64,000 nucleotides of DNA from a virus, in the IMG/VR virus record IMGVR_UViG_3300022602_000084, positions 1 through 64,000 of that record, one strand, 5' to 3'. A program made the position numbers and the translations under genes. Of the stretch, positions 1,306 to 57,362 are shown piece after piece; position 1 is the first letter of the stretch; every line of letters begins with the position of its first letter. Under the pieces are notes generated by a model. That model saw nothing but the letters and a program-made list of their open reading frames with translations, was not told the DNA's origin and did not search any database.

Positions 1306-2762
1306 TGCAAAATGTTATTACGCGAGATTTTATAAATCCCAATTTTAAATTACAAGGTGATAATAGTTTAATATCAAAAAGTCAATTAGTTGACATGATT
1401 CGGTATTGGAAAATACTGTTGTGGGAAAAGTATCAGCTGCGTAAAGGATCAAAAGTAGGTATTGCATGCCTGGAAGTAGATGCGTATCATATATCATTAA
1501 TTTTTGCTTGCTCCGAATTAGGCTGTCAGTTCGTAAGTTTAGATCATCCTATCTCTCAAGCAACTATAAACAAGACAAAAGCAGCAATGTTTTCTCCAAT
1601 TGATTTAGGTATTGTTGACGATATACTAGTTAAAGATGGGTTGCATCAAAAGATGTTAGAAACTTATTGTAAACAGGTAGCACCGCTAAGTGTATTTGAT
1701 TCGTATAATATTGCCGATCATGGATTATTTTTGACTGTAGCCGATTTTTATTTTTGTCAAGAGGATGATGTGTTGTTTTTGGCATCTACCAGTGGTACCA
1801 CTTCGGAATCGACACGGGTGCCCTATACACACAAATACACGGCACAGTTGTCCGTTAGGAATAGTGTGATTTTTAATCATAAAAATCATAGTCGAGTGAT
1901 ACACACACGAAACATGCATCATGCTAGTAGTCTACTATTGCATTTTTTGCCAACATTATATGCTTGTTCAAATCACTGGCACAAATATTTTAATTCCAAT
2001 GATCACGAATCAATGGATAAATTTATAGACATGTTGATTAATTTCCAGATTAATTTTTGTTTGTTAGATAATCGATTTAATTTAGATTCAATAATTAAAA
2101 AATTAAAATATCGAAAAATATGTTTTGATCATTCAATTGAGTTTAATATCAGCGGCTTTTTATTAGACAGGCAATTGCAAGATAATATTGCCGACCATAA
2201 TATAACAGTAGTATCTACATTTGGTTCGGTAGACACCGGTGTTCCGCTCTTTATTAATCGATTAACTCGTGATACCGATCCGTTTTCATTAACCGACGGA
2301 TTAATTGGATACTTTCCAGATGACGATTTTTATCGTTTAACAATATCAGAAGGATCAGTGCAGGTTGATTGCCCCGGACACTGGCATGCCAGGACCCTGA
2401 ATGATTGTATTAAAGAAAAAAATAACGTATACTATCACTTACATCGAAGTAACACAATTACTTTTGAAAATTTAAGTTTTGATCTAGTTTCATTGACAGG
2501 GTTTGTACAACAACTACTCAATAACACCGATTTATCTGTAGTAGTGGACTTAAAAAATCAATCTTTATATTTGGTTATATGGAACAATTTTGTTACTATC
2601 GAGTTACATGCACTAAAACAAGCACTAATTGATTCTAAATTTAAAAATTGCGCATCATTTTTTAAAAAAATAAAAAATTTAAACAAGAAACAGTTTACCA
2701 TTGACACTAAAGTAAGTGTTGATCAATTAAGGGGATACTTGCAAGCAAATGACACGAATTAA
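1305..2762 (+). CDS. ANL-superfamily adenylate-forming enzyme (AMP-dependent ligase-like)
   Basis: This 485-residue protein looks like an acyl-/aryl-CoA-ligase or adenylation-domain enzyme, which activates a carboxylate as an acyl-AMP. The phosphate-binding motif STSGTTSESTRV is at 161-172, with a HASSLLLHFLP segment after it. STFGSVDTG at 304-312 sits where the A5 motif is expected. HRSNTITFE near 380 resembles the hinge motif, with N replacing the usual D. DTKVSVDQLR near the C terminus places K469 where the A10 catalytic lysine belongs. The fold is therefore complete rather than truncated, but the substrate cannot be read. It lies between gp47 and gp46, starts at the gp47 stop (TAATG), and is more AT-rich than its neighbours, which suggests acquisition. 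No carrier-protein gene is visible nearby. Confidence 0.75.
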   Translation: MQNVITRDFINPNFKLQGDNSLISKSQLVDMIRYWKILLWEKYQLRKGSKVGIACLEVDAYHISLIFACSELGCQFVSLDHPISQATINKTKAAMFSPIDLGIVDDILVKDGLHQKMLETYCKQVAPLSVFDSYNIADHGLFLTVADFYFCQEDDVLFLASTSGTTSESTRVPYTHKYTAQLSVRNSVIFNHKNHSRVIHTRNMHHASSLLLHFLPTLYACSNHWHKYFNSNDHESMDKFIDMLINFQINFCLLDNRFNLDSIIKKLKYRKICFDHSIEFNISGFLLDRQLQDNIADHNITVVSTFGSVDTGVPLFINRLTRDTDPFSLTDGLIGYFPDDDFYRLTISEGSVQVDCPGHWHARTLNDCIKEKNNVYYHLHRSNTITFENLSFDLVSLTGFVQQLLNNTDLSVVVDLKNQSLYLVIWNNFVTIELHALKQALIDSKFKNCASFFKKIKNLNKKQFTIDTKVSVDQLRGYLQANDTN

Positions 2763-2847
2763 AAATTTAACTGTTAAGGAGGCAACAGATTTAAAGAATT
2801 TAAGAATTCTGCCGTGGAAAGATAATTCAATGAGGAACTATAGTTGA
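2749..2847 (+). CDS. Mini-ORF (32 aa) between the ANL enzyme and gp46; possible remnant
   Basis: A 32-residue frame starts with ATG overlapping the last codons of the ANL gene and ends in a TGA that overlaps the gp46 TTG start. Its residues 4-10, IKNLTVK, are identical to residues 4-10 of gp46, and the codons differ only at three third positions. It could be a duplicated and degraded gp46 start left by a rearrangement. Alternatively the phrase LTVKEATDLKNLR looks like the beginning of a GNAT acetyltransferase, so it could be a truncated GNAT gene. It could also simply couple translation into gp46. Confidence 0.35.
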   Translation: MTRIKNLTVKEATDLKNLRILPWKDNSMRNYS

Positions 2848-4613
2848 TTAGTATAAAAAATTTAACCGTGAAGAATTTTATGAGTGTGGGTAATGCTACA
2901 CAAGCCATTGATTTTGATCGACGCGATCTTACACTGGTATTAGGCGAAAACTTAGACCTAGGAGGAGATGATTCGGGTGCACGTAATGGTACGGGCAAGA
3001 CCACTATCATCAATGCTCTTAGCTATGCCTTGTATGGTAATGCTCTTACTAATATTAAAAAAGACAATCTAATCAATAAGACCAATAGTAAAAACATGAT
3101 GGTCACTATTGATTTTGAACAAGAAGGCGAAAGTTATAGGATTGAACGTGGACGTAAACCAAACATAATGCGGTTCTTTGTTGGTAATACCGAACGCGAG
3201 ATAACCGACGAAGCACAAGGCGATAGCAGAGAAACGCAGGCCGAAATAGAACGTATGCTGGGCATGACGCACGAGATGTTCAAACACATTGTGGCACTAA
3301 ACACTTATACTGAACCATTTTTGTCACTCAAGGCAAACGATCAAAGAACTATTATTGAACAGTTGTTGGGCATTACGCTACTCAGCGAAAAGGCAGAATC
3401 ACTCAAAGAACAAATCAAAGCCACTAAGGATGCTATAACACAGGAAGAATTTAGAATCAAGGCAGTCACTGATGCCAATGCACGTATACAAGAACAAATA
3501 GAAAATCTCAAACGCAGACAAACACTGTGGCTTAAAAAACATGACGAAGATTTAGATAAATTGGTTGCGGCTTTTGACGAACTAAATGCACTAGATATTG
3601 AGGCCGAACTAGTCGCCCATCAAAAATTAAACGACTACAACAAGAAAAAAAGTGAAATAGACCGTATTAAAGGCTACATTGCACAGAACGAACGTGACCA
3701 AGCTCGAGAAGACAAAGAACTAAGCAAATTAAAAGCCGAGTTAGAAGCACTACAAAAGCATCAGTGTCATGCCTGCGGACAAGACTTGCATGATGACAAT
3801 CACGAACAGATGGTAACTGACAAGCAACACCAAATCAGTAACACAGCTATCAATGCACTTTCGGCTAACACACAGTGGTTTCAAAATACCGAAACACTAA
3901 AAGCGCTAGGCGAGTTAGGCGACCCTCCTGAAGTATACTATACCAATGAATCAGATGCGTTTGAACATAGAAGTAGTATGGGCAGTATTCTAGCACAATT
4001 AACCGCAAAGCAAGAAGAACTAGATCCTTACAGTGACCAGATTAAGGACATGAGCGAACAAGCATTAGAAGATGTCAATTACGACTTAATGAACGAACTT
4101 GATCGAATTCGTCAACATCAAGAGTTTTTGCATAAATTATTGACTAACAAAGATTCGTTTATACGTAAACGTATCATTGATCAAAACTTAAGTTATCTAA
4201 ATGCACGTTTAGGACAATATCTAGATCGCATAGGATTACCGCATACTGTAAAATTTAACAATGATTTAACTGTAGCAATCAGTGAACTAGGCAGAGAATT
4301 AGACTTTGATAATTTATCAAGAGGCGAGCGTAATAGGCTTATATTGAGTCTAAGTTGGGCATTTAGAGACGTTTGGGAAAGTTTGTATCAACCTATTAAT
4401 TTGTTGTTTATCGACGAGTTGATTGACAGTGGACTAGATGCAAATGGTGTCGAATCTGCGTTGGGTATACTTAAAAAGATGGCAAGAGACAGTAATAAAA
4501 GTATATGGTTAGTATCGCATCGAGAAGAATTAGCAGGACGAGTCCATAATACCCTACATGTGGTCAAAGAAAACGGATTTACTACCTATAACACCGATAT
4601 TGAAATAAATTAA
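2844..4613 (+). CDS. 46: gp46-like recombination endonuclease ATPase (Rad50/SbcC family)
   Basis: This is the SMC-like ATPase partner of gp47. Walker A GARNGTGKTT lies at about 45-54. Two long charged coiled-coil segments flank a CHAC zinc-hook (C-x-x-C) near residue 310. The ABC signature LSRGERNR is near 491, Walker B LLFIDE near 520, a D-loop SGLD just after it, and a switch histidine (LVSHREE) near the C terminus. At 589 residues it is slightly longer than T4 gp46. The start is TTG, supported by GAGG eight bases upstream and by conservation from the first residues. Confidence 0.93.
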   Translation: MISIKNLTVKNFMSVGNATQAIDFDRRDLTLVLGENLDLGGDDSGARNGTGKTTIINALSYALYGNALTNIKKDNLINKTNSKNMMVTIDFEQEGESYRIERGRKPNIMRFFVGNTEREITDEAQGDSRETQAEIERMLGMTHEMFKHIVALNTYTEPFLSLKANDQRTIIEQLLGITLLSEKAESLKEQIKATKDAITQEEFRIKAVTDANARIQEQIENLKRRQTLWLKKHDEDLDKLVAAFDELNALDIEAELVAHQKLNDYNKKKSEIDRIKGYIAQNERDQAREDKELSKLKAELEALQKHQCHACGQDLHDDNHEQMVTDKQHQISNTAINALSANTQWFQNTETLKALGELGDPPEVYYTNESDAFEHRSSMGSILAQLTAKQEELDPYSDQIKDMSEQALEDVNYDLMNELDRIRQHQEFLHKLLTNKDSFIRKRIIDQNLSYLNARLGQYLDRIGLPHTVKFNNDLTVAISELGRELDFDNLSRGERNRLILSLSWAFRDVWESLYQPINLLFIDELIDSGLDANGVESALGILKKMARDSNKSIWLVSHREELAGRVHNTLHVVKENGFTTYNTDIEIN

Positions 4614-38753: not shown

Positions 38754-39488
38754 ATGTTTTTAGATAACAAATACACAAGTTGGTATAACAATATAATTGC
38801 CAACGCACAAAATCGATCCATATTAGGATATACCGAAAAACATCATATTATACCCAAGAGTATTGGAGGGGAAGACATTGCCTCCAATATTGTAGCATTG
38901 ACTGCTAGGGAGCATTTTATTTGTCATTTATTGCTTACTAAAATGACAACAGAAAAATTTAAAAGAAAATTAATTCATGCCGCTTGGGGAATGTGTAATT
39001 TAAAAGGTCCTGGACAACAACGGTATAAAGTATCTTCAAAAACCTATGAAGAATTAAAAATAAAACATGCAGATGCATTATCTAAATTATATACCGGAGT
39101 TAAAAATAGTAAGAAATCTAATCCTGGTGTAAAAAATGGATTTTATGGAAAATCACATTCTGAAGAAACGAAAGAAAAAATAAGAAAAGCTAGGTTAGGC
39201 ACAAAAGATTCTAACGAAGTTAAGATCAAAAAATCCATATCTGCAAAACAAAAACCCCCAGTGTCCGACACTACAAAACAAAAATTAAGCATAGCAAATA
39301 AAGGACGTGCAGGTTTTTCTGGAAAAGAAAATCCTTTCTATGGAAAAACGCATTCAACGGAGTCTCGAAAAAGAATGAGTGAATCGCATCTTGCAGAACC
39401 TAAGAAAACATGTTATCATTGCAACAAGACTGTAGATGCACGTAATTTTGGGAGGTGGCATGGGGACAAATGTAAACACAAACAATAA
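38754..39488 (+). CDS. HNH homing endonuclease with NUMOD3 repeats
   Basis: A 244-residue protein. The HNH core is EKHHIIPKSIGGEDIASNIVALTAREHFICHLLL near 28-61. NUMOD3-type DNA-binding repeats follow (NGFYGKSHSEETKEKIRKARLG, ENPFYGKTHSTESRKRMSESHL), and a C-terminal zinc-finger-like CYHCNKTVDARNFGRWHGDKC ends the protein. Base composition is AT-richer than the neighbours. It overlaps the gp1 start by 29 bp, and its codons supply the gp1 ribosome-binding site. Free-standing mobile gene. Confidence 0.85.
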   Translation: MFLDNKYTSWYNNIIANAQNRSILGYTEKHHIIPKSIGGEDIASNIVALTAREHFICHLLLTKMTTEKFKRKLIHAAWGMCNLKGPGQQRYKVSSKTYEELKIKHADALSKLYTGVKNSKKSNPGVKNGFYGKSHSEETKEKIRKARLGTKDSNEVKIKKSISAKQKPPVSDTTKQKLSIANKGRAGFSGKENPFYGKTHSTESRKRMSESHLAEPKKTCYHCNKTVDARNFGRWHGDKCKHKQ

Positions 39489-50922: not shown

Positions 50923-51347
50923 TGAAACAGTATCGCATCACCAGTGCCAACTTTGTACCTCAAGGAGAAACTGGTGACGCCGATGCGTTCATTGATCCCA
51001 ATGAACTACGTGATTTAAAACGCCTTGCTGGTATGCCGGTATTTGAAGATTCTGGCGGCATGACCGATAACGGTGCCGGACCGGTTGGTGGCAATTTAGA
51101 CAATGTGCCCTGGGAAAAAGAAACTGGCATACGCAGTCCAGTAGGCAGCCTACAACACCGATTGGCCCTAGAGCGTCGTCAATTACTCGACGAGTATGCA
51201 GTCACTACCGGCAGCGATCTTTGGTTCATAATCATGTTTACCAATCCTCGCGAAGGCGGCAAAAATCTCAAACAGTACGTTGAAGAGTATCTAGAAAAAA
51301 ATCCCAAGTACAAACCCAAATTGGCACCGGGCACTAGCCCCAATTAA
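50922..51347 (+). CDS. Small head-associated protein with RLAGMP motif
   Basis: A 141-residue protein whose ATG overlaps the stop of the previous gene (TAATG). It has LRDLKRLAGMPVFEDSGG near 27-45, matching the upstream 875-residue protein and the gp22 C terminus, then a helical stretch and DLWFIIMFTNPREGGKNLKQYVEEYLEKNPKYKPKL. The shared motif suggests docking to the same head component. The function is unknown. Confidence 0.65.
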   Translation: MKQYRITSANFVPQGETGDADAFIDPNELRDLKRLAGMPVFEDSGGMTDNGAGPVGGNLDNVPWEKETGIRSPVGSLQHRLALERRQLLDEYAVTTGSDLWFIIMFTNPREGGKNLKQYVEEYLEKNPKYKPKLAPGTSPN

Positions 51348-51880
51348 CGACTAGCAACCTTTTTGTCAGTGCCCAAGTATTGGTTCCATGACTCTTGCCT
51401 AACCGTAAACGGCATTTCCTTCCACTTTTTAACTAGTGCATAGTAATCGGGCTTGTAGGGTTTGATCCGGGGCAAGATGTTGGTCTTACTACCTTTATGA
51501 AAGTTACAAGTCTTGCAAGCAGTTACACAGTTAGTCCAATTGGTCTTACCACCACTAACACGTGGCACAACGTGGTCTATGGTCAAGTCTTCAAAATCAA
51601 ACACATCCGAGCAGTATTGACATTGAAATAAGTCACGTAGATACATGTTGTACCTACTGAAACGTACACCCTTTTTGTAGTGAAAGTAGTCCTTGGTTAC
51701 GCATACACTAGGCACATTAATAGTCAAATGTTCGGAACGGATTAACCAATCAGGATAAGTTTCGAGTACATTAACTCGGCCCAGGAACATGAGTTTGATG
51801 GCATGTTGCCAATTGATCACGCTAAGTGGTAGTATACTAATTGGTTCGTAGTTGCTGTTGAGCAACAAAGTATCACTCAT
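51344..51880 (-). CDS. HNH endonuclease
   Basis: A 178-residue protein with a textbook HNH/His-Me finger: CQYC, DHVVPRVSGGKTNWTNCVTACKTCN, so two zinc CxxC pairs and catalytic DH. The N terminus (LLLNSNYEPISILPLSVINWQHAIKLMFLGR) is the conserved start of a family common in T4-like and bacterial genomes. It is transcribed opposite to the terminase gene beside it. HNH genes next to terminase assist packaging in some other phages; a mobile-nuclease role is equally possible. GAGG precedes the ATG. Confidence 0.88.
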   Translation of the reverse strand: MSDTLLLNSNYEPISILPLSVINWQHAIKLMFLGRVNVLETYPDWLIRSEHLTINVPSVCVTKDYFHYKKGVRFSRYNMYLRDLFQCQYCSDVFDFEDLTIDHVVPRVSGGKTNWTNCVTACKTCNFHKGSKTNILPRIKPYKPDYYALVKKWKEMPFTVRQESWNQYLGTDKKVASR

Positions 51881-51906
51881 TTTGATTACCTCTTTTTGAA
51901 ATGGTG

Positions 51907-51913
51907 TTAAATA
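51907..51913 (+). promoter_or_regulatory. Late promoter TTAAATA for terminase N half
   Basis: Late-type box 28 bp before the ATG at 51942, downstream of the divergent HNH gene. Confidence 0.55.
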
Positions 51914-51941
51914 TACTTATATTATATAGCGATTATCATTT

Positions 51942-52859
51942 ATGAGCAAAGATTTAGAAACGGCGATTATACGTAATCCCTATCAAAAAATGAGTATGAC
52001 CGAGGAGCAGATTCTCGAGTTTGCTCGATGTGCTGACCCAGTCACTGGTCCCGAATACTTCATGACCAATTACTTTTATATTCAGCACCCTACTAGAGGT
52101 AGCATACAATATAAACCTTACGAATACCAAATTCGCCTAATCGATGCTTACCATAACAATAGATTCTCAATAAGTCTAATGCCTAGACAAACAGGTAAGA
52201 CCATCAGTGCCGCAGGATACTTGTTGTGGTTTGCGATGTTTGTTCCGGATAGTACCATTCTTGTTGCGGCACACAAGTATTTGGGTGCACAGGAGATCAT
52301 GCAACGTATACGCTACAGTTATGAAAACTGTCCAGACTTTATACGTGCCGGTGTTACCAGTTATAACAAAGGGTCACTGGACTTTGAAAATGGTAGTCGC
52401 ATTGTAAGTCAAACAACAACAGAAAACACCGGTCGTGGTATGTCCATATCGCTCTTGTACTGTGACGAGTTTGCGTTTGTGAGGCCCACTATTGCAAGTG
52501 AGTTTTGGACTTCAATTACTCCTACATTGTCAACTGGTGGTAAATGTATTATTACAAGTACCCCCAACTCGGATGAAGATCAGTTTGCACAGATATGGCG
52601 TGCCGCTAACGAATGTTTTGACGAGTATGGTAACACTACCGTACTAGGTAAAAACGGATTTCGGGCCTTCTCTAGCAAGTGGCAAGAAACTCCCGGCCGT
52701 GACGAAGCATGGGCCAATCAAATGCGTAGCCAACTTGGTGAAGAACGCTTCCGTCGTGAAATGGAATGCATTACGCAAGATTCAATTTTAACTCTACGCG
52801 ATAACTCGGGTAAAATTTTTACTGCAACCATTGGTGATCTTGAACAATTATTACGTTAA
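51942..52859 (+). CDS. 17: gp17 terminase large subunit N-terminal half fused to a split intein N fragment
   Basis: Residues 1-275 are the packaging ATPase: Walker A MPRQTGKT (80-87), Walker B LLYCDEF with D175/E176, coupling motif TSTPN (206-210), and the typical end EERFRREME. Residue 276 begins a 30-residue tail, CITQDSILTLRDNSGKIFTA plus TIGDLEQLLR, that is not terminase. It begins with Cys and has the block A pattern of an intein N terminus, and then a stop. The nuclease half is encoded 546 bp downstream with the matching C-intein. This resembles AceL-TerL, an atypical TerL split intein with a very short N fragment. Splicing should yield a 519-residue gp17. Confidence 0.9.
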   Translation: MSKDLETAIIRNPYQKMSMTEEQILEFARCADPVTGPEYFMTNYFYIQHPTRGSIQYKPYEYQIRLIDAYHNNRFSISLMPRQTGKTISAAGYLLWFAMFVPDSTILVAAHKYLGAQEIMQRIRYSYENCPDFIRAGVTSYNKGSLDFENGSRIVSQTTTENTGRGMSISLLYCDEFAFVRPTIASEFWTSITPTLSTGGKCIITSTPNSDEDQFAQIWRAANECFDEYGNTTVLGKNGFRAFSSKWQETPGRDEAWANQMRSQLGEERFRREMECITQDSILTLRDNSGKIFTATIGDLEQLLR

Positions 52860-52876
52860 GTTCATCATTTACGATA

Positions 52877-52883
52877 CTAAATA
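52877..52883 (+). promoter_or_regulatory. Late promoter CTAAATA abutting the homing endonuclease start
   Basis: Five bases (ATAAT) separate the box from the ATG at 52889. The mobile gene therefore has the same promoter-ATG arrangement as the phage's own genes and should also lead transcription of the terminase C half. Confidence 0.7.
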
Positions 52884-52888
52884 ATAAT

Positions 52889-53428
52889 ATGAAAACACAT
52901 AAACATCATATTATTCCTAGGCATGCAGGCGGCACAGATGATCCTTCTAATGTTATAGAATTAACTGTAGCGGAACATGCAGAAGCACATAAAAAATTGT
53001 ATGAACAATATGGAAGAGTACAAGATAAAGTTGCTTGGATGGGGCTAGCAAATTTAGCACCACACTCAGACTTAATGTATGAATTAAATTCTAATAGGAT
53101 GAAGGGCGAACTAAATCCAATGTACGGAAAGCCGGCCCCTAATCGTGGAATAAAACGTCCTGGGGTTGGTGGCAGAAAGAAAGGGACAACGTGGTCTGAG
53201 GAAGAACGCAAATCAAAAATGGAAATGCATAAATCTAAAGAGCATAAAGAAAAAATGAGTAAAGTTTACACTGATACGACTCGCAATGAAAAAATAGCAA
53301 AAGGACGAAAAGGGAAACTTGGTGCCGCAAATGGTAAAGTTTGGTTTAATAACGGCATAGAAGAAAAATATTATATATTAGGCCAACAACCTGAAGGATA
53401 CGTTCGTGGAAGAATTAATAAAAAATAA
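52889..53428 (+). CDS. HNH homing endonuclease between the split terminase halves
   Basis: A 179-residue protein. The HNH core is HKHHIIPRHAGGTDDPSNVIELTVAEHAEAHKKLYE at the very N terminus. NUMOD3-like elements (LNPMYGKPAPNRGIKR, KSKEHKEKMSKVY) follow, then a C-terminal NUMOD-type domain with VWFNNGIEEKYYILGQQPEGYVRGRI. It is AT-rich. It overlaps the C-half start by 23 bp and its GAA GGA codons provide that gene's ribosome-binding site. Its expected target is a terminase gene without the split intein. Confidence 0.88.
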   Translation: MKTHKHHIIPRHAGGTDDPSNVIELTVAEHAEAHKKLYEQYGRVQDKVAWMGLANLAPHSDLMYELNSNRMKGELNPMYGKPAPNRGIKRPGVGGRKKGTTWSEEERKSKMEMHKSKEHKEKMSKVYTDTTRNEKIAKGRKGKLGAANGKVWFNNGIEEKYYILGQQPEGYVRGRINKK

Positions 53429-54473
53429 ATTAGGCTTACAAGTATTAACAGATACCGGATGGAGCGACTTTGATGGAGTACTCAACAAAGGCCAACGACA
53501 AGTAGCATTGGTGCAATTAGAGAAGGCATCTATTAGAGCAACACTTGATCATAAAATATTTACAGATAAATTTGTTGCCCTAATGGTTAAACAATTGAAA
53601 CCTGGAGTTAAAATACACACTACATTAGGTATACAAAAAGTTGTCTCGGTTACTAGTTTTGAAGTAGAAACAGTATATGATTTATTAAACGTAAAAAATA
53701 ATCATAGATTTTATGCAAATGGCATTTTATGTTCAAACTGTGAATTCATTATTTTCGATGAGACATTGATTAATTCATTGCATTTGGTCAACATGGCCGG
53801 TGTAGAACCCATAGAACGTCAGGGACAGATACGTTGGTATAAAAAGCCCGAAAAAGGATGTACATACATTGTGGGCCTAGATCCCAGTCTGGGCACTGGT
53901 GGTGACCCGGCTGCTATACAGGTATTCGAAGTTCCCGGACTCAAACAAGTGGCCGAATGGAGTCATAACAAAACTATTGTACAACGACAAGTTGTTATCA
54001 TGCAGGAAGTCTGCAAATATCTGGCCGAAGTTGCCGGAGCCGAAAGTGTATTTTGGAGCGTGGAAAATAACACCTTGGGCGAAGCGGCCTTGGTGGTTAT
54101 TGCACAAATGGGCGAAGAAAACATTCCGGGTATATTTTTAAGTGAACCCAAACGAGTTGCGGGCACACGTTGGCGTAAAGGATTTACCACTTCAAACAAG
54201 AGCAAACTTGCGGCTTGTGCCAAGTTGAAAAGTCTAATTGAAACCAATCGAATGCGAATTGCCAGTAAAATGCTGGTATCAGAACTAAAAAACTTTGTGG
54301 CCAAAGGGCACAGTTACGAAGCCAAATTGGGACAACACGACGACTTGGTAATGGCAACACTATTGATAATAAGAATGTTGCAATACATACAAGACTTTGA
54401 CGCATCCACCGATGCCGAACTACGAGATACTGTGGACAATTTTATCGAGCCAATGCCGTTTATAATGTCCTAG
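53406..54473 (+). CDS. 17: Split intein C fragment fused to gp17 nuclease half
   Basis: Starts at GTG with AAGGA seven bases upstream. Residues 1-111 are an intein C fragment: LQVLTDTGWSDFDGV, block B with TLDH (46-49), block F VYDLLNVKNNHRFYANG (90-106) and block G ILCSN ending in Asn111. The penultimate residue is Ser, not the usual His. Cys112 is the +1 residue and starts the terminase C-extein (CEFIIFDETLINS). The RNase H-like nuclease follows with YIVGLDPSLGTGGD, WSVENNTLGEAA and GQHDDLVMATLL. The split lies between intein blocks A and B, as in AceL-TerL, not in the usual endonuclease position. Confidence 0.92.
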   Translation: MEELIKNKLGLQVLTDTGWSDFDGVLNKGQRQVALVQLEKASIRATLDHKIFTDKFVALMVKQLKPGVKIHTTLGIQKVVSVTSFEVETVYDLLNVKNNHRFYANGILCSNCEFIIFDETLINSLHLVNMAGVEPIERQGQIRWYKKPEKGCTYIVGLDPSLGTGGDPAAIQVFEVPGLKQVAEWSHNKTIVQRQVVIMQEVCKYLAEVAGAESVFWSVENNTLGEAALVVIAQMGEENIPGIFLSEPKRVAGTRWRKGFTTSNKSKLAACAKLKSLIETNRMRIASKMLVSELKNFVAKGHSYEAKLGQHDDLVMATLLIIRMLQYIQDFDASTDAELRDTVDNFIEPMPFIMS

Positions 54474-54474
54474 T

Positions 54475-55038
54475 ATGCAAATAACCAATATCACTGATAG
54501 ACTTTTTCGACTCGAAAATATAGTTCCTGAGTCAGTAGTGACACAACTACTTGAACTAGATTGGTTATCGATGCCGTGGCGTCGCGGCCATGCACAACAA
54601 CACTGGTTGAGACGCAGTTTGGATTTTGGCAATTGTGCCGTACTAGAGCAAGTACACAATTGTATCTGGCAAGCGATTCCGCAGATTGAATCGCAGTGTG
54701 CCATTGAATTTGAGTCACGATTTCCGGCGACCCAGTGGTGGTTAGACGAGCCGGGATTCAAGGTCGATTTACACACCGACGGGCATTTGAACGGCAGCAT
54801 ACAGTTATTTTGGCTAGCCCCCGGGCCCGAATTTGGCACAACTTTCTACAACAGCAAACGTGAACATGACTTATTATATCAATTCCCTTTTGTGGCCAAT
54901 ACCGGATACATGATGTTAAACGGGCCCGACCCCGATGGAAGTCAGCCGTTGCAGTGGCATGCCATGTTGCGTACTGTGCCAGACAACACATACCGTGTCA
55001 CAAGTTATACACATTTTACCAATTATTTGACTAAATAA
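54475..55038 (+). CDS. 2OG-Fe(II) oxygenase-like protein
   Basis: A 187-residue protein with the double-stranded beta-helix metal site: H100-x-D102 in DLHTDGH, distal H162 in QWHAML, and R174 in YRVTSY for 2-oxoglutarate binding. Such small oxygenases are frequent in aquatic T4-like phages, where substrates (protein, nucleotide or DNA) are mostly unknown. It follows the terminase gene by one base and overlaps the late promoter of the next gene. Confidence 0.75.
   Translation: MQITNITDRLFRLENIVPESVVTQLLELDWLSMPWRRGHAQQHWLRRSLDFGNCAVLEQVHNCIWQAIPQIESQCAIEFESRFPATQWWLDEPGFKVDLHTDGHLNGSIQLFWLAPGPEFGTTFYNSKREHDLLYQFPFVANTGYMMLNGPDPDGSQPLQWHAMLRTVPDNTYRVTSYTHFTNYLTK
55031..55037 (+). promoter_or_regulatory. 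Late promoter CTAAATA abutting a start codon
   Basis: The box overlaps the end of the oxygenase gene; five bases (ACTTT) separate it from the ATG at 55043, without Shine-Dalgarno sequence. Confidence 0.7.
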
Positions 55039-56588: not shown

Positions 56589-57362
56589 CTACTTTAGCCT
56601 AGCCCGAAATGCAATTTTGACACTGGGGATTTCTATAGGACCATTGGCCGGAAGTGTACTGTGCAAGCATCTTCCGTCGTATATTATCAGTCGTCCGGGA
56701 ACGGGGCTGACCACTTTTCCTTGATCTAGCCATCCTATATTGTATCCACGTGTTTGCCCAATACCGGTATTGAACTGTTGTTTGTCTCCAGTAACGCCTT
56801 CGTCGTCGTTGGGATAAAATTTGATTTCGGCTCCCCAAGATGGATACCATGTGGGATTGACCACGTACAACATAGTGACTGTATTGTCTTCGTTGTTTTC
56901 CAACGGAGTATCTCTATGAGCATACCCCAATCCTCCAGTGGCCTGTAGGTTATACACAAGATTGATATAAGCTCGCCAACCGGCACTGAGATTGGGATCC
57001 TCGGGCACGGGAGGATTATGCGGACAATAAATTCCTTCGGGATTTCCGGTCAACTCGTATTTGTTGCCCAGTTGTTTGTTCAACTGCATCCATAACAGAT
57101 ATATAGGCATGGATGCAATTTTTAATCCGGGTTCGTCACTGGACAACGGGGATCGATGCATTTTCATTTTGCGAGGAATTGATTTGTACAACATCCAATC
57201 GGCGGGGTTTTTGACACTGGAAAGACTGTAGTTGATTTGAACAGGATCTTCCTTGTCCCATCCGCCGTGAAATTGCAATTCTTGTATGTGTTTCCAAATA
57301 TTGTCTCTAACAGTTTTAGAAATCAAATTGTCGTGCGTTTCGATGTTGTAGGGTATATTCAT
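56589..57362 (-). CDS. 2OG-Fe(II) oxygenase
   Basis: A 257-residue protein with H149-x-D151 in GYAHRDTPLE, a GAEIKFYP turn, distal H234 in YDGRCLHSTLP and the 2-oxoglutarate-binding Arg near 253 (VKIAFRAR). The spacing fits prolyl-hydroxylase-like enzymes that act on protein side chains, but the substrate is not shown. It is a different branch from the small oxygenase at 54475. Minus strand, with TTAAATA late box upstream (57384-57390). Confidence 0.85.
   Translation of the reverse strand: MNIPYNIETHDNLISKTVRDNIWKHIQELQFHGGWDKEDPVQINYSLSSVKNPADWMLYKSIPRKMKMHRSPLSSDEPGLKIASMPIYLLWMQLNKQLGNKYELTGNPEGIYCPHNPPVPEDPNLSAGWRAYINLVYNLQATGGLGYAHRDTPLENNEDNTVTMLYVVNPTWYPSWGAEIKFYPNDDEGVTGDKQQFNTGIGQTRGYNIGWLDQGKVVSPVPGRLIIYDGRCLHSTLPANGPIEIPSVKIAFRARLK

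What the first reader, a model, noticed from the sequence alone, without database searches (positions are those of the whole stretch)
51942..54473. Fractured terminase gene: atypical TerL split intein with an HNH homing endonuclease between the halves
The ATPase half of gp17 ends with 30 residues beginning at Cys276 that read as an intein N fragment. The nuclease half begins with 111 residues holding block B (TLDH), block F and block G (SN before Cys112). The split is between blocks A and B, giving an unusually short N fragment. The HNH gene lies between the halves and overlaps the C half. AceL-TerL is a known metagenome-derived TerL split intein with a similarly short N fragment, and fractured genes with intervening homing nucleases were described from metagenomes by Dassa et al. 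This locus places both in an annotatable phage genome, with an HNH/NUMOD3 nuclease. Without trans-splicing the phage would lack a working packaging motor.
Basis: partly seen in the sequence, partly recalled or inferred. Interest (0 to 1): 0.93.

Follow-up and report, generated by a model that had tools for sequence, protein, structure and literature searches.

The report
Phage motor gene split by intein
This phage makes its DNA-packaging motor protein as two separate pieces that a tiny self-removing protein element most likely welds together, while a DNA-cutting gene sitting between the pieces has probably helped carry the whole insert from one phage to another.

Summary
The gp17-type terminase gene is cut at EME|CEF by a 972-bp insert: a 30-residue intein N fragment, a separate HNH/NUMOD3 nuclease gene, and a 111-residue intein C fragment whose GTG start overlaps the nuclease gene by 23 bases. 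A profile of the C fragment family finds CatC, the consensus atypical TerL split intein, at 3.6e-18 and VidaL at 2.7e-12. The predicted C half is an intein (HINT) fold joined to the T4 gp17 nuclease domain. Over 100 related contigs carry the same site without an insert. A second contig (L005) has the insert at 97.0% DNA identity while its exteins are only 86% and 77% identical, and the window's closest extein relative is empty: the signature of recent homing. The HNH gene is one of several interchangeable nucleases (HNH, GIY-YIG, DUF7487) in the same slot; some relatives have lost it but keep its tail. It is a new member of the AceL/GOS-TerL family in the known "fractured gene" arrangement, not a first: cultured Serratia phage 92A1 has the same layout. 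Splicing and DNA cleavage are inferred. Most novel lead: relatives with gp17 in three or four pieces.

The parts
51942..52766 (+). TerL (gp17) N-extein, ATPase half, 275 aa, ending EME
   Evidence: Pfam Terminase_6N 4.7e-16; PHROG terminase large subunit 1.9e-63; the family aligns to T4 gp17
52767..52856 (+). Intein N fragment (IntN), 30 aa, Cys1; stop TAA 52857-52859
   Evidence: Begins exactly where empty relatives continue CEF; Cys1 invariant in the 11 aligned sequences
52889..53428 (+). HNH/NUMOD3 homing endonuclease gene, 179 aa, between the halves
   Evidence: Pfam HNH 2.5e-4, just above its cut-off; NUMOD3 below cut-off in the window copy but above it in relatives L021, L089 and L096; PHROG 655 homing endonuclease 2.1e-17; dN/dS about 0.15 against L005
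53393..53398 (+). GAAGGA Shine-Dalgarno-like site for TerL-C, lying inside the 3' end of the HNH gene
   Evidence: Seen directly; present in many relatives and kept where the nuclease is lost (L009, L010, L091)
53406..53738 (+). Intein C fragment (IntC), 111 aa, blocks B, F, G, ending SN; GTG start overlaps the HNH gene by 23 bases
   Evidence: Family profile against PDB: CatC 3.6e-18, VidaL 2.7e-12, gp41-1 2.7e-10; predicted HINT fold, VidaL 1.6 A over 103 columns
53739..54473 (+). TerL (gp17) C-extein, nuclease half, 244 aa, starting CEF (Cys+1)
   Evidence: Pfam Terminase_6C 7e-6; fold match T4 gp17 6.8e-13 and RB49 gp17 nuclease domain
52767..53738 (+). Whole 972-bp mobile insert (IntN + HNH gene + IntC)
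   Evidence: 97.0% identical to L005 between exteins of 86.2% and 77.3%; precisely absent in L007, L008, L016; third-position GC about 0.2 against about 0.4 in the exteins

Best explanation
The terL (gp17) gene of a T4-type tailed phage is interrupted at the ATPase/nuclease boundary by a mobile fractured-gene element. Two polypeptides are made: ATPase half + 30-aa IntN, and 111-aa IntC + nuclease half. IntN docks into the incomplete HINT fold of IntC. Cys1 and Cys+1 carry out class 1 trans-splicing, releasing the intein and yielding a seamless 519-residue motor (EME-CEF). The HNH/NUMOD3 gene in between encodes a homing endonuclease that cuts intein-less terL alleles at or near this junction in co-infected cells, so that repair copies the insert. 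The tail of the nuclease gene also carries the ribosome-binding site of the C half, which ties the parts together. Shown here: anatomy, intein homology and fold, precise empty alleles, recent transfer, purifying selection. Inferred: the splicing chemistry, DNA cleavage, and cutting at this site.
For: Anatomy. IntC family profile: CatC 3.6e-18, VidaL 2.7e-12. C-half model (pLDDT 84.5) matches T4 gp17 and VidaL. Empty sites with gap 0. Insert 97.0% identical to L005 against exteins 86.2%/77.3% and outer flanks 56-62%; dS 0.08-0.14 in HNH and IntC against 0.85 and over 2 in the exteins; dN/dS about 0.15. The C-extein tree puts the empty L007 beside the window, with L005 outside (97/79). Split inteins that lost the nuclease keep an IntN/IntC pair (L009, L010, L042, L091). 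No Rfam match in 51000-55000.
Against: No biochemical or proteomic data. The 30-aa IntN is too short for its own significance test; it is assigned by position and conservation. The homing site and cleavage are not demonstrated, and there is no clear co-conversion tract next to the junction. The HNH match is only just above the Pfam cut-off, and its fold search was inconclusive. The L007/window sister grouping has moderate support (97/79). Block G has Ser before the last Asn instead of the usual His, though relatives share this.
Confidence: 0.93

Rival explanations
1. The gene is simply split by a free-standing homing endonuclease, and the two terminase halves work as a non-covalent complex, as proposed for split nrdA of Aeh1 and split gene 43 of Aeromonas phage 25.
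For: Such functional split enzymes are described in T4-like phages (PMC2988022); the break lies at a domain boundary.
Against: Both ends carry intein fragments with conserved catalytic residues. IntC is under purifying selection. In HEG-less relatives both fragments remain, which a non-covalent complex would not need.
Confidence: 0.04
2. The interruption is an RNA intron (group I or II) whose ends happen to be translated.
For: Introns do interrupt phage terL, for example in Jug phages (PMC12363816).
Against: No Rfam family matches in 51000-55000 at E up to 1; the tails have intein homology and a HINT fold.
Confidence: 0.01
3. The element is decaying: this terL copy is non-functional and another terminase is used.
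For: The record is a fragment (67 kb), so a second terL elsewhere cannot be excluded.
Against: Both exteins are under strong purifying selection (N-extein dN/dS about 0.05) and neither IntN, IntC nor HNH shows a lesion.
Confidence: 0.02

Closest known systems
AceL-TerL, GOS-TerL and the consensus Cat-TerL atypical split inteins
   Same: Terminase large subunit host, very short IntN (25, 37 and 30 aa; IntC 104-115 aa; PMC11766414), class 1 layout with Cys+1, split between blocks A and B; profile best hit is CatC.
   Different: Here the surrounding phage genome, the nuclease gene, empty alleles and a near-identical second copy are available. Single-sequence identity to CatC is low (24% in the Foldseek alignment).
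VidaL (atypical split intein, PDB 6vgv)
   Same: Closest intein fold to the window's IntC (1.6 A over 103 columns); short IntN (own knowledge).
   Different: About 25% identity.
Fractured genes of Dassa et al. 2009 (split inteins with a homing endonuclease gene between the halves)
   Same: Same gene order: N half, endonuclease gene, C half.
   Different: Paper not held, so known here only by title, citation and memory. In the window the nuclease is HNH/NUMOD3, and relatives use GIY-YIG or DUF7487 in the same slot.
Split PolB intein with HNH gene in Pseudomonas phage MIJ3 (PMC6892783)
   Different: Host gene is DNA polymerase B; MIJ3's own terL is uninterrupted at this site (N match ends and C match begins at the same codon).
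Serratia phage 92A1 gp17 (OR088902)
   Same: gp17 fractured at the same position with an atypical split intein and a nuclease gene between.
   Different: SegE-like GIY-YIG gene (weak match, 0.0024), 37-aa IntN; nuclease and C half annotated only as hypothetical proteins.

Membership tests
Intein (HINT domain), class 1 | Splicing blocks A, B, F, G with Cys/Ser at 1, TxxH in block B, C-terminal Asn and Cys/Ser/Thr at +1 | tested here: met
   Cys1, TLDH, VYDLLNVKNNHRFYANGILCSN, Cys+1; penultimate residue is Ser, not His
Intein (HINT domain), class 1 | HINT fold | tested here: met
   C-half model matches VidaL 5.7e-9, Cat, gp41-1, DnaX inteins; IntN is not in the model
Intein (HINT domain), class 1 | Precise absence from homologous host genes | tested here: met
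   Gap 0 at EME|CEF in over 100 contigs
Atypically split TerL inteins (AceL/GOS/Cat) | Two genes, split between blocks A and B, IntN of about 25-37 aa | tested here: met
   30 + 111 aa; reference lengths from PMC11766414
Atypically split TerL inteins (AceL/GOS/Cat) | Sequence relationship to the family | tested here: met
   Best profile hit CatC 3.6e-18
Atypically split TerL inteins (AceL/GOS/Cat) | Trans-splicing activity | not testable with these tools
   Needs co-expression or mass spectrometry
Fractured-gene homing element | Homing endonuclease gene between the halves | tested here: met
   HNH + PHROG 655 homing endonuclease
Fractured-gene homing element | Horizontal mobility into the same site | tested here: met
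   Insert 97% identical between phages with exteins of 86%/77%; extein tree conflicts with insert presence
Fractured-gene homing element | Site-specific cleavage of the empty allele | not testable with these tools
   No cleavage data

The most novel reading that the evidence does not exclude
terL is a hotspot where a split intein acts as a stable docking frame for interchangeable nucleases (HNH, GIY-YIG, DUF7487), held together because the nuclease tail also carries the start signal of the C half. Several such elements accumulate in one gene, so some phages build the packaging motor from four separately made pieces by three trans-splicing reactions (L096, L160, L224, L231).
Probability: 0.55. 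Interest if true: 0.78.

Novelty: new member of a known kind. Interest (0 to 1): 0.6.

Why it matters
AceL-TerL-type split inteins are used as protein-engineering tools and are known mostly from metagenome fragments. This locus gives the whole element with its nuclease, empty target alleles and a near-identical copy in a diverged phage, so homing of a split intein can be tested directly. The relatives show nuclease exchange, nuclease loss and motor genes in up to four pieces. They bear on the open question of how split inteins arise and persist, and offer natural sets of inteins that must work side by side in one protein.

Tried and rejected
Assembly or frameshift artefact: rejected (same split in independent and diverged contigs). 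RNA intron: no Rfam hit. IscB-type nuclease: the NCBIfam match (1.2e-4, 21 bits against a cut-off of 175) covers only the HNH motif. Co-conversion tract: looked for, no raised identity next to the junction between window and L005. Fold search of the HNH protein: model weak (pLDDT 68.5) and no significant match. Dassa et al. 2009 is not held. L084 was not placed in trees with confidence because of its long branch.

Full report
Observation. The window is bases 1-64000 of a 67,132-base IMG/VR virus record. The terminase large subunit gene is in two parts on the + strand. TerL-N (51942-52859) is 275 residues of ATPase half followed by 30 residues from Cys276 to a TAA stop. TerL-C (GTG 53406-54473) is 111 residues followed by 244 residues of nuclease half. 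The 179-aa HNH/NUMOD3 gene (52889-53428) lies between them and overlaps TerL-C by 23 bases. Third-position GC is about 0.2 in the IntN, HNH and IntC parts against about 0.4 in the exteins. Pfam recognises Terminase_6N, HNH and Terminase_6C; the intein families score below cut-off for the single sequence.

Is it an intein? Yes. A profile built from 14 related C fragments finds CatC, the consensus atypical TerL intein, at 3.6e-18, VidaL at 2.7e-12 and gp41-1 at 2.7e-10 among solved structures. The AlphaFold2 model of the C half (mean pLDDT 84.5) matches T4 gp17 (6.8e-13) and RB49 gp17 nuclease for the extein, and VidaL (1.6 A over 103 columns), DnaX, Cat and gp41-1 inteins. The catalytic positions are in place: Cys1, TLDH, the block F His, the final Asn and Cys+1. 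The penultimate residue is Ser. That is unusual for inteins in general but shared with relatives. IntN is assigned by its position and by conservation of Cys1 and surroundings.

Empty alleles and insertion point. In more than 100 related viral contigs the two exteins are joined with a gap of exactly 0 nt at EME|CEF. L007, L008 and L016 are such empty alleles with N-exteins 97.8% identical in amino acids to the window. The site aligns to chain residue 352/353 of T4 gp17 structure 3ezk, just before the nuclease domain (counted from the printed alignment).

Mobility. L005 carries the same insert in a different phage. The insert is 97.0% identical in DNA, the N-extein 86.2%, the C-extein 77.3% and the outer flanks 56-62%. 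Synonymous divergence is 0.08 (HNH), 0.14 (IntC) and 0 (IntN) against 0.85 and over 2 in the exteins, while dN/dS is about 0.15 in HNH and IntC. In the C-extein tree the window's sister is the empty L007, with L005 outside (97/79). So the insert moved between these lineages long after the host genes diverged, and its parts have been under purifying selection since. The change in identity is sharp at the splice junctions, with no visible co-conversion tract. L104 (empty) and L004 (identical to the window over the C half) bear the same JGI sample number in their contig names, so both alleles appear to co-occur.

Interchangeable nucleases. At the same site the slot holds an HNH gene (window, L005, L011, L021, L092, L093; L089 a longer form), a GIY-YIG gene (L014, L090, L095, L096; broken in L027), or a gene of about 340 aa (L015, L049, L088, L099; broken in L046) matching DUF7487 where tested (L015, L099), which I read as the Vsr-like endonuclease type from memory. 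GIY-YIG assignment rests on weak LEM-3 and SegE-type Pfam matches for two genes and on motif reading for the others. The HNH and GIY-YIG versions share a NUMOD3-type region and a C-terminal tail with W(F/Y)NNG and GR motifs. Close intein relatives carry different nucleases, for example L014/L027/L095 (GIY-YIG) beside L098/L099 (DUF7487 type).

Why the tail stays. The last codons of the HNH and GIY-YIG genes contain a GAAGGA-like ribosome-binding site and overlap the start codon of the C half. In L009, L010 and L091 the nuclease is gone but its last codons remain in front of IntC. L042 keeps a short stretch resembling the tail seen in L049. I infer that the tail is kept because TerL-C needs it for translation.

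Relatives in many pieces. The same gene is fractured at two further sites: in the Walker A loop (GK|T, model position 87) and near Walker B (168-175). Among 184 distinct fetched loci, which were selected by intein and terL searches and so are not a prevalence estimate, four have split inteins at all three sites, leaving gp17 in four pieces (L096, L160, L224, L231); others have two. The pieces are open, in order and together cover the gene. In L160 pieces 3 and 4 are separated by one TAA only.

How it compares. The intein is a member of the atypically split TerL inteins (AceL 25+104, GOS 37+115, Cat 30+104; PMC11766414) in a fractured-gene arrangement. It is not the first in a phage genome: Serratia phage 92A1 has it at the same site, and the MIJ3 paper describes the arrangement in PolB. 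In the papers I could search I found no description of gp17 in four intein-split pieces, but key papers are not held.

Shown and not shown. Shown: anatomy, homology, fold, precise empty sites, recent transfer, selection. Not shown: protein splicing, DNA cleavage, the exact cut site, and that the spliced protein packages DNA.

Noticed in passing
L096, L160, L224, L231: terL with split inteins at three sites (Walker A, Walker B, EH|C), so gp17 is encoded in four pieces; found in four distinct contigs.
   Followed up: partly
L042/L043, L163, L182 and others: terL in three pieces through two split inteins.
   Followed up: partly
L103:2241-4451: An open frame runs from the N-extein through the Walker A intein while an endonuclease-like ORF (2566-3480, DUF559 match) lies inside it in another frame.
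   Followed up: no
L160:7264-7266: Terminase pieces 3 and 4 lie in one frame and are separated by a single TAA stop.
   Followed up: partly
L091:1281-2843: A contiguous mini-intein without nuclease at the Walker B site, and IntN at the third site read through into a remnant of the nuclease tail.
   Followed up: partly
window 38754-39488: A second homing endonuclease gene of the same family (PHROG 655, 6.4e-59), 34% identical to the intein-associated one over its matched part; a third partial match lies at record bases 65090-65233, outside the window.
   Followed up: no
window 51344-51880, minus strand: A separate HNH endonuclease gene directly upstream of terL on the opposite strand (Pfam HNH 9.9e-15).
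   Followed up: no
window 56589-57362, minus strand: Probable 2OG-Fe(II) oxygenase near terL (1.1e-5, just below the Pfam cut-off).
   Followed up: no
L084 (Serratia phage 92A1, OR088902): Cultured phage with gp17 fractured by a split intein and a nuclease gene; annotated as terminase plus two hypothetical proteins.
   Followed up: partly
L085 (Klebsiella phage fENko-Kae01, OR228459): terL with a contiguous insert at the Walker A site that reads as an intein with its own endonuclease domain; annotated as hypothetical.
   Followed up: no
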